64,000 nucleotides of DNA from Candidatus Brocadia pituitae (GTDB taxonomy: Bacteria; Planctomycetota; Brocadiia; Brocadiales; Brocadiaceae): NCBI GenBank assembly GCA_017347445.1, contig AP021856.1:1434613-1498612 (forward strand), read 5' to 3'. Positions 5,101-7,258 of the stretch are shown here, piece after piece; the first letter of the stretch is position 1, and every line of letters begins with the position of its first letter. Below the pieces are notes generated by a model. It ran no database searches, was not told where the DNA came from, and saw only the letters and a list, made by a program, of their open reading frames with translations. The position numbers were made by a program, and so were the translations under genes.

Positions 5101-5284
5101 ATATTTCTCCTTTACGTATTGAAAAACAGCATAAAGGTTTTTTGAAATTAAACATCTTGCCTCTTTATGAATGATTCTTCAGCTTCTCGCAATAGTTTTC
5201 TTCTGAGTGAGCTTGTATTAAATTGTCGTATGCCTGAAAGCAAAGGGGATGACGAAGAATGAATCGGGGGATTTTAAAAAGGGA

Positions 5285-5370
5285 TTAATAACCGACCGGC
5301 TAAAGTACAGTTATTAACCCCCTGGGACCAGGTCAAGGAGGTTTTAACACCTCTTTGCTAGGCCTTTTCT
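5285..5370 (+). ncRNA. Tandem structured RNA element, copy A
   Basis: An 8-bp perfect stem TTAATAAC/GTTATTAA closes a loop with the conserved sequence CGACCGGCT...GTACA. It is followed by CTGGGACCAGG, a GAGG/CCTC hairpin, CTCTTTGCTAGGCC and a T-run. Copies B and C share the loop, the TGGGAC box, the GAGG-type hairpin and the terminal T-run, while the closing stem differs in sequence but keeps its pairing. The T-run suggests terminator-based control. I do not recognise a known riboswitch class. Confidence 0.6.
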
Positions 5371-5510
5371 TAATTTTAGAAATTATTTGTATTAATGTCA
5401 ACACTAAACAGCAGGAGATTTTCAACGACTGTTTGAAATTCCTAAAATAGGATTTTTGTAAAAAAGTAGTTTTTTGAAAAATCATTCTATTTATAGATGA
5501 CCCACAAGAA

Positions 5511-5581
5511 ACGGAATACGTAGCTCTGGTGGCTTTCCCCCGCCAATATTGCTAACGAATGGAGCCAACCCAAGGGACCGT
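5511..5581 (+). ncRNA. Candidate structured RNA of unknown class
   Basis: Nested pairings can be drawn: ACGG/CCGT outside, TAGC/GCTA, then GGTGG/CCGCC around a CTTTCCC loop. The loop GGC..TCC could also pair with downstream GGAGCC as a pseudoknot. It is followed by a short T-run (CATTTTTAAAA). It is a single copy, so there is no covariation to support it, and it matches no class I know. Confidence 0.3.
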
Positions 5582-5687
5582 CGCGACATTTTTAAAACCT
5601 AAATTATTAGGATTTTTAATATTTCCATTGACAATGATATTTTTTGCTATATATTTATGAGACTAAGACTCAGTATAGTATGTTTTG

Positions 5688-5777
5688 TTTAACCGCAGAC
5701 CGGCTCATGTGTACAACGGTTAGACAAATGGGACAATGGCAGGGAGAAGGTGCCCCTCTTTTGTTGGGCTTTTTTTG
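5688..5777 (+). ncRNA. Tandem structured RNA element, copy B
   Basis: The closing stem is TTTAACCG/CGGTTAGA (8 bp with one G-U), around CAGACCGGCT...GTACAA. Then come TGGGACAATGG, an AGGG/CCCT hairpin and CTCTTTTGTTGGGC with a seven-T run. The loop CCGGC can pair with GTTGG just before the T-run using two G-U pairs. This long-range pairing would place a stem directly upstream of the U tract. The short hairpin around GGGAC seen in copies A and C is not conserved here. Confidence 0.62.
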
Positions 5778-5868
5778 TTGGATTTTTCAGAGACATTCAG
5801 GACTAAAAAAACAAGCACGTCTGTTTTTTCGGGTCCTCGGTGTCTTTAGTAAAGAAGACCGTGTGAGG

Positions 5869-5960
5869 TTGTTGGCCGACCGGCTGATAGTATAGCTAAC
5901 AATCTCTGGGACCAGGCGAGGGGGGGATGCCAACCCTCTTTGCCGGGCTTTTTGTGTTTT
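5869..5960 (+). ncRNA. Tandem structured RNA element, copy C
   Basis: The closing stem is TTGTTGGC/GCTAACAA (8 bp with one G-U), around CGACCGGCT...GTATA. It is followed by CTGGGACCAGG, a GAGGG/CCCTC hairpin and CTCTTTGCCGGGC with a five-T run. CCGGC in the loop is fully complementary to GCCGG before the T-run. This copy is the one nearest the downstream gene, whose start is about 230 bases away. Confidence 0.65.
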
Positions 5961-6190
5961 ATCAGGCGCTACCTCAATAATGCACCTGATGTATTGGGAT
6001 AAGGAGGTGATCTGGCAGGTGGCATGGATAAGAAAAAGGATCGGTAATTTCACAAGAGATTGGTGAATTTCAGCCGGTTCACTTCATCTTAGTGAAAGGA
6101 GGAGTTCCTTATAATCTGGGATTGAGAATGAAACAAAGATTCTCTAAAGAGTGCAAAATGGTTAAACACGAAATTATACAAGGAGGGCAT

Positions 6191-7258
6191 ATGAAATTGA
6201 GAAAAAAGATGAGGGCACTGTCGTGGATCTTCTTTTTGGGAGCAATTGTTGGCATCAATAGCGCCAATCTGCGTACAACAATGGCTGAGAACGGTTCAGA
6301 CACGGGATTGTTAATTGTTGGACACGGCTATTTTAGTCAGGATCAAAAATTCTTCGAGTTTGTAAATGAGGTGCAAAAACGATTGCCGGAATATCCGGTG
6401 GACAGTGGCCTGCACATGGTTATGGATATGCAGACGCATAAGATGTGGCAGACGGAAGATGAGGCCATTCGGCGCCTTGCATCTCAAAGAGTAAAAAAAG
6501 TGGTCGTTATCCCTTTTTATCTGAACACAAATTCCAGCACCGTTAATGCGATCAAATGGGCCATTGGTTGTCAGGTTGACGGGGAGCCAGGCAAAAGTAA
6601 CTATTTGGACGAAATCATAGAATGCCCCGAGACGTATGATCCCGAGAACGATCTGTGCATGCATATGGGTGGTGTGCATAGGAGATTTCACAATTTTAGC
6701 GATATTCAGTATATTGCCACCAATGCAATAGATTATCACGAAGATATTTCATCTGTGTTTTTGGAACGAGCCCTGGAATATAGTACCGACAAAGACAATG
6801 AAGTGGTATTCCTGATCGGACATGGAGATGGAGACGACGTCATAGACCAGGATTACCGTGACAATGTATTGGCAAAATATGCAAGTGACGTCAAGAGCAT
6901 GGGTGGATTTTATGACGTTCAATACGGCACCCTTCGTGAAGATTGGTGCGAGCAAAAACGCGTTGCCGTGGAGGATATCAGGAATAGGATTACTGCTGCG
7001 TACCATGAGGGGCGCAAGGTCATATGGGTGCCAGCTCGTGTCTCCAGCTGGAGTAAAGTGCATGATCAGGTATGGGACCCACAGGATTGCAGCATCCAGG
7101 ACGCCGGGAATAAATTAGGTACCAAAGACCTGCTGGATGCGGGCATGTATACGAAGGCGAATTTTCTGCTTTACGAGCCTGCATCATTAGCTGATTGGGC
7201 GGTTTCAATGTTTGAGGAAGCGCTGCGAAAGGATCACTATATAGATTGTCAAAAATGA
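6191..7258 (+). CDS. Exported CbiX/CbiK-like chelatase-superfamily protein
   Basis: 355 residues with an N-terminal signal peptide (LRKKMRALSWIFFLGAIVG...). The start at 6191 is chosen for its GGAGG site 4 bases upstream. Two half-repeats each carry an HG motif: GLLIVGHGYF near residue 40 and VVFLIGHGDGDD near 200, as in sirohydrochlorin chelatases. In the first half VVIPFYLNTNSST occupies the place where CbiX has its second metal-binding His, and that His is missing. A catalytic cobalt or iron chelatase is therefore doubtful; an exported metal- or tetrapyrrole-binding role is possible. It lies downstream of three RNA elements and upstream of a GEVED-domain gene. Confidence 0.6.
   Translation: MKLRKKMRALSWIFFLGAIVGINSANLRTTMAENGSDTGLLIVGHGYFSQDQKFFEFVNEVQKRLPEYPVDSGLHMVMDMQTHKMWQTEDEAIRRLASQRVKKVVVIPFYLNTNSSTVNAIKWAIGCQVDGEPGKSNYLDEIIECPETYDPENDLCMHMGGVHRRFHNFSDIQYIATNAIDYHEDISSVFLERALEYSTDKDNEVVFLIGHGDGDDVIDQDYRDNVLAKYASDVKSMGGFYDVQYGTLREDWCEQKRVAVEDIRNRITAAYHEGRKVIWVPARVSSWSKVHDQVWDPQDCSIQDAGNKLGTKDLLDAGMYTKANFLLYEPASLADWAVSMFEEALRKDHYIDCQK

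What the first reader, a model, noticed from the sequence alone, without database searches (positions are those of the whole stretch)
5285..5960. Three tandem covarying RNA elements upstream of an exported chelatase-like gene
Each copy has an 8-bp closing stem with different sequence but preserved pairing (TTAATAAC/GTTATTAA, TTTAACCG/CGGTTAGA, TTGTTGGC/GCTAACAA), an almost invariant loop CNGACCGGCT...GTAYA, a TGGGAC box, a GAGG-type hairpin, CTCTTT and a T-run. The loop CCGGC can pair with the segment just before the T-run (perfectly in C, with G-U in B, imperfectly in A). Conserved loop, variable helix and terminator-like end are what a riboswitch or attenuator family looks like. Three in a row could give a graded or AND-type response. 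Context suggests a corrinoid, tetrapyrrole or metal ligand.
Basis: partly seen in the sequence, partly recalled or inferred. Interest (0 to 1): 0.85.

Follow-up and report, generated by a model that had tools for sequence, protein, structure and literature searches.

The report
Tandem leader-RNA switches in anammox bacteria
Three copies of a previously uncatalogued folded RNA element sit in a row in front of an exported-protein gene in an anammox bacterium; relatives in 11 genomes, mostly next to promoters that carry the same box as the iron-transporter gene feoB, suggest a new family of RNA switches whose signal is still unknown.

Summary
The three copies belong to a structured RNA family of 33 copies in 11 Brocadiaceae (anammox) genomes from 3 genera. 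I found it nowhere else among 392 Planctomycetota genomes, and it matches nothing in Rfam 15. In all 33 copies the loop CCGGC can pair with a tail before the T-run, forming a pseudoknot that competes with the terminator-like hairpin. Copies B (13/13) and C (10/10) end in a T-run; A does so in only 3/10. A, B and C are separate old clades in fixed order. They head operons for a chelatase-like protein, a DUF1559 pilin-like protein, cytochrome b and a NodU-type carbamoyltransferase. Copy B usually follows a promoter with a Fur-type box shared with feoB and DUF2325. A corrinoid ligand is not supported; iron-linked control is the better lead. Best reading: serial leader attenuators, riboswitch-like, ligand unknown. 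The transcripts and the sensing step are not shown.

The parts
5281..5368 (+). Copy A: P1 5281-5292/5310-5321, loop 5293-5309 (GACCGGCT 5294-5301), P2 hairpin and tail 5324-5364, weak T-run 5365-5368
   Evidence: Sequence; fold; CM hit E 2.4e-14
5684..5776 (+). Copy B: P1 5684-5695/5717-5728, loop 5696-5716, P2 and tail 5730-5769, T-run 5770-5776
   Evidence: CM hit E 5.1e-17
5865..5953 (+). Copy C: P1 5865-5876/5895-5906, loop 5877-5894, strong terminator-like P2 and tail 5908-5948, T-run 5949-5953
   Evidence: CM hit E 1.8e-13; terminator scan hit
5628..5655 (+). Predicted promoter of the B transcript: TTGACA-N16-TATATT
   Evidence: 11 of 12 matches; similar promoter upstream of B copies at chelatase, pilin and cytochrome b loci
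5658..5672 (+). Fur-type palindrome TGAGACTAAGACTCA just after the -10
   Evidence: 13/14 match to TGAGACTNAGTCTCA; same box in 11 of 13 B leaders and in front of feoB in 10 of 11 Brocadia genomes and of DUF2325
5961..5990 (+). P3 hairpin ATCAGG...CCTGAT after copy C
   Evidence: Comparable hairpin after other C copies
6001..6012 (+). AAGGAGGTGATC, complementary to the usual 16S rRNA 3' end (from general knowledge), followed by a short possible leader ORF
   Evidence: Similar string in 10 aligned leaders; short ORF read by eye, peptide not conserved
6191..7258 (+). Downstream gene: exported protein with weak similarity to sirohydrochlorin chelatases (CbiX/CfbA)
   Evidence: NCBIfam CfbA E 4e-5, far below its curated cut-off; no Pfam hit (longer ORF); signal peptide by eye

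Best explanation
The three copies are modules of a cis-acting leader RNA. Each has a 12-bp hairpin (P1) with an invariant loop and a second hairpin (P2). A tail can close the base of P2 or pair with the P1 loop as a pseudoknot. In B and C this tail runs into a U-tract, so RNA polymerase would stop or read through depending on which pairing forms. B and C would act as two gates in series on one transcript that starts at a promoter with a Fur-type box. A is a sister module that mostly lacks the U-tract and lies near the 3' end of DUF2325 genes in several genomes. Shown by computation: the RNA fold, the strand, the family, the gene association, the promoter box and the constant order. Inferred: attenuation, the switch between the two pairings, and sensing of a ligand or protein. 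A small-molecule or metal ligand is my first guess for the signal, ahead of a binding protein.
For: P1 covariation: 6 of 8 core pairs change on both sides; P1 and P2 together have 53 two-sided cells against 18.5 in shuffles, no shuffle as high. The outer 4 bp, not used to build the model, pair in 119 of 132 cells with TA/AT/GC exchanges. P2 has 79 G-U against 20 A-C cells, so the RNA is read from the + strand. Loop-tail pairing is possible in 33/33, although the lower P2 stem is not complete in 9/33; two cytochrome b copies keep a GCCGG tail with no P2 partner. T-run present in 13/13 B and 10/10 C. Copies lie in the same orientation as the operon that follows. In the cytochrome b loci roughly 100-220 nt lie between the T-run and the start codon and I saw no promoter there by eye, so read-through is the likely route. 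Clades A, B and C keep their order across three genera, and the cytochrome b and NodU copies derive from B and C. B promoters carry the feoB-type box.
Against: No transcript or termination data exist here. The loop is invariant, so the pseudoknot has no two-sided changes to support it. P2 in B copies is weak (mostly -5 to -12.6 kcal/mol). A lacks a T-run in most loci, so termination is not the function of every member. The family is small (33 copies, 11 genomes) and the copies are related. Two chelatase-like genes (G001 and G026) have no detected copy upstream, though the G026 contig ends soon after. The ligand is unknown.
Confidence: 0.58

Rival explanations
1. The same leader fold is bound by a regulatory protein that favours or blocks termination, with the P1 loop as binding site, rather than by a small ligand.
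For: A single highly conserved loop on a variable stem and a narrow taxonomic range would fit a protein target.
Against: No candidate protein tracks with the element: DUF2325, the neighbour, is in 31 of 33 family genomes whether or not the element is present.
Confidence: 0.2
2. Copy B (and perhaps C) mainly makes a Fur-controlled small RNA of the RyhB/PrrF type that acts in trans, with the T-run as its own end.
For: B follows its own promoter with a Fur-type box and ends with a T-run about 110-120 nt later.
Against: A and C have no such promoter and A mostly has no T-run. In the cytochrome b loci the leader seems to be the only route to the gene. A constant position upstream of operons is unlike a trans-acting RNA.
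Confidence: 0.15
3. The copies are passive insulating terminators or a spreading repeat with no sensing role.
For: Intergenic repeats are common here: a repeat with inverted ends lies between A and B, and the leader-operon unit is duplicated at 199 kb.
Against: Invariant loop, two-sided covariation in P1 and three position-specific clades kept across genera; A is strongly conserved although it mostly lacks a T-run.
Confidence: 0.07

Closest known systems
Guanidine-IV riboswitch and its Gd4v variant (PMC7736828, PMC9788692)
   Same: Two hairpins joined by a pseudoknot, highly conserved bases in and around it, and a 3' hairpin that looks like an intrinsic terminator.
   Different: No Rfam hit on the window copies even at E 10; different gene contexts; here P1 is 11-13 bp and part of the family (A) lacks the T-run.
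HMP-PP (thiS) riboswitch (PMC6478431)
   Same: Alternative pairings built into the terminator itself, with a possible pseudoknot that disrupts the terminator stem near the U-run.
   Different: The thiS motif serves thiamin genes; no Rfam match here; in the new element a separate 5' hairpin supplies the competing loop.
Tandem c-di-GMP-I riboswitches (review PMC9481103)
   Same: Doublets and triplets of switches in one leader. A c-di-GMP-I element lies in the same pilin leader in G001 and in G015.
   Different: The new copies do not match RF01051 or any other Rfam model; the genome has 44 c-di-GMP-I matches of its own elsewhere.
Fur-regulated small RNAs RyhB/PrrF (from general knowledge)
   Same: Fur-type box at the start site, roughly 100-nt RNA, intrinsic terminator.
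   Different: Copies A and C lack the promoter; B appears to be the leader of the gene in the cytochrome b loci.

Membership tests
c-di-GMP-I riboswitch (RF01051) | Match to the family covariance model | tested here: not met
   No hit on the window copies at gathering score or E 10; members elsewhere in the genome are found
Cobalamin riboswitch | Match to the family covariance model | tested here: not met
   Rfam scans of the window and 19 further loci give no such hit
Cobalamin riboswitch | Consistent link to corrinoid genes | tested here: not met
   Other copies head DUF1559 pilin, cytochrome b and NodU genes
Guanidine-IV / Gd4v | Two hairpins, pseudoknot, terminator-like 3' hairpin | tested here: inconclusive
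   Layout fits B and C, but the pseudoknot has no two-sided changes and A lacks the T-run
Guanidine-IV / Gd4v | Family-specific conserved bases (sequence membership) | tested here: inconclusive
   No Rfam match, but I did not confirm that a guanidine-IV model is in the library
Riboswitch in general | Conserved fold with covariation upstream of several unrelated gene families | tested here: met
Riboswitch in general | Direct ligand binding that changes expression | not testable with these tools
   Needs in-line probing or transcription assays
Fur-regulated sRNA (RyhB/PrrF type) | Fur-type box at own promoter | tested here: inconclusive
   Met for 11 of 13 B copies, not seen for A and C

The most novel reading that the evidence does not exclude
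A new riboswitch class, confined to anammox Brocadiaceae, that senses iron or an iron-linked metabolite (Fe2+, a heme or siroheme precursor) and gates read-through in two steps on transcripts already under a Fur-type promoter box, giving a double check at initiation and elongation.
Probability: 0.2. Interest if true: 0.85.

Novelty: new member of a known kind. Interest (0 to 1): 0.62.

Why it matters
No regulatory RNA of anammox bacteria came up in the papers I could search, and these organisms depend heavily on iron and heme. A compact, well-delimited RNA family with clear alignments, a predicted promoter box shared with feoB and defined target operons makes a testable entry point. If it binds a ligand it would be a new riboswitch class with an unusual layout: two terminator modules in series plus a mostly non-terminating sister.

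Tried and rejected
Known Rfam families: none, also at E 10 on the window and on L041. Wider spread: an exact-pattern scan of the GTDB genome collection gave 37 places; the non-Brocadia ones fail the covariance model, as do 2 viral-contig matches. Diverged copies next to DUF2325 in other Brocadiaceae: none. DUF2325 as binding partner: no co-occurrence. Corrinoid ligand: rejected as the default, since target genes are mixed. The short DNA hits of the first BLAST other than the 199-kb copy are a different repeat lying between A and B. First MAFFT alignments misplaced the GGGA linker; I padded loops with N by hand for the seed. Literature searches found no description of this motif, but the library holds open-licence papers only.

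Full report
WHAT IS THERE. The window lies in a 4.08-Mb single-contig genome (G000) of the genus that holds named Candidatus Brocadia records. Copies A, B and C sit between a cobalamin-pathway gene run (CbiD, a CbiE-type and a CbiL-type methyltransferase) and an exported protein with weak similarity to sirohydrochlorin chelatases. A second cluster with B and C, 97% identical, lies at 199 kb before a near-identical copy of the same operon, with a transposase-like gene between leader and chelatase-like gene.

THE FAMILY. A hand-padded seed of 13 copies found 33 copies in 11 of 33 family genomes, in 3 genera, E 7e-5 to 1e-19. The same set came back with a second model over 62 order genomes, and nothing outside the family among 392 Planctomycetota (stricter filters). 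Rfam has no match.

STRUCTURE. P1 is 11-13 bp and ends next to GGGA. Six of its eight core pairs change on both sides. The four outer pairs, not part of the model, form in 119 of 132 cells with TA, AT and GC types (I allowed shifts of up to 2 nt, used in 3 copies). G-U exceeds A-C in P2 by 79 to 20, which marks the + strand. P2 folds as a long hairpin reaching the GGGA at its 5' base in A and C and is weaker in B. The tail GYY-R-GG can pair with the loop CC-GGC in 33/33 copies, while the lower P2 pairs are complete in 24/33. Two cytochrome b copies keep GCCGG with no P2 partner. This favours a real loop-tail pseudoknot, but the invariant loop allows no two-sided test. T-runs: A 3/10, B 13/13, C 10/10.

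HISTORY. A tree of the 33 copies groups them by position A, B or C. The array is therefore older than the genus split, the cytochrome b copies derive from B and the NodU copies from C.

CONTEXT. Arrays or single copies precede the chelatase-like operon (G000 twice, G009, G010, G006, G007), a DUF1559 pilin-like gene (G001, G013, G015, G022), a cytochrome b operon (G000, G001, G004) and a carbamoyltransferase cluster (G015, G022); one A copy lies after a chelatase operon in G026. A follows a DUF2325 gene in several loci.

PROMOTER AND IRON LINK. Most B copies follow TTGACA-N16/17-TATAnT-like promoters and then a palindrome close to TGAGACTNAGTNTCA. The box scores 12-13 of 14 in 11 of 13 B leaders and 11-13 of 14 in front of feoB in 10 of 11 Brocadia genomes; background 350-nt stretches reach 11 in 4 of about 880 cases. 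The window genome's own feoB is the exception. The box also precedes DUF2325 through most of the family and porin-like genes. It resembles the 7-1-7 Fur box (general knowledge), and two Fur-family genes are present in the genome. I infer iron control of these transcripts; Fur binding itself is untested.

MECHANISM. I think B and C are two intrinsic terminators in series whose closure competes with loop-tail pairing, set by a ligand or a protein. Shown: fold, strand, family, context, box. Inferred: termination, switching, sensing. The nearest architecture is guanidine-IV/Gd4v (two hairpins joined by a pseudoknot with a terminator-like 3' hairpin, PMC9788692, PMC7736828), then the terminator-embedded HMP-PP switch (PMC6478431). 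Triplets of whole riboswitches of one class are known (PMC9481103). In two pilin leaders the array shares the leader with a c-di-GMP-I riboswitch, so the new module probably reads a different signal.

LIMITS. Copies are related, so shuffle counts are not probabilities. No RNA data were available. The count of 44 c-di-GMP-I elements is of matches over the family cut-off.

Noticed in passing
G000 whole genome; L084:10570-10686, L085:13653-13800: The genome has 44 c-di-GMP-I riboswitch matches over the Rfam cut-off; relatives carry one inside the leader that also holds the new array. Many seem to head genes for exported or surface-related proteins, judged by eye.
   Followed up: partly
window 5452-5600 (approx.): Between A and B lies a dispersed repeat with inverted ends (GTTTTTTGAAAAA ... 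TTTTTCAAAAAAC in other copies), similar to at least six other places in the genome; it looks like a small non-autonomous mobile element.
   Followed up: partly
L014:7770-8843: In the second operon copy at 197-199 kb a transposase-like gene separates the B-C leader from the chelatase-like gene.
   Followed up: no
window 5961-6060: After C (or the last B) a hairpin, a long Shine-Dalgarno-like AAGGAGGTGATC and a string like ATTGGTG..TTTCAGCCGGT recur between chelatase and pilin leaders; a short leader ORF with no conserved peptide may start there.
   Followed up: partly
L078, L079, L080, L085, L086 and L134-L163: A Fur-type box precedes DUF2325 in most Brocadiaceae; a paper lists DUF2325 as possible secondary cargo of anammox encapsulins (PMC6934571). 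DUF2325 genes are linked here to copy A.
   Followed up: partly
upstream of C copies, e.g. L085, L086, L076: A recurring string like CTCTGTATTCTCTGTGTCCTCTGTGGTTA lies a few tens of bases before several C copies.
   Followed up: no
L214, L219, L222, L224, L226, L229: A porin-like gene with a coiled-coil start has the same box at its promoter in six Brocadia genomes.
   Followed up: no
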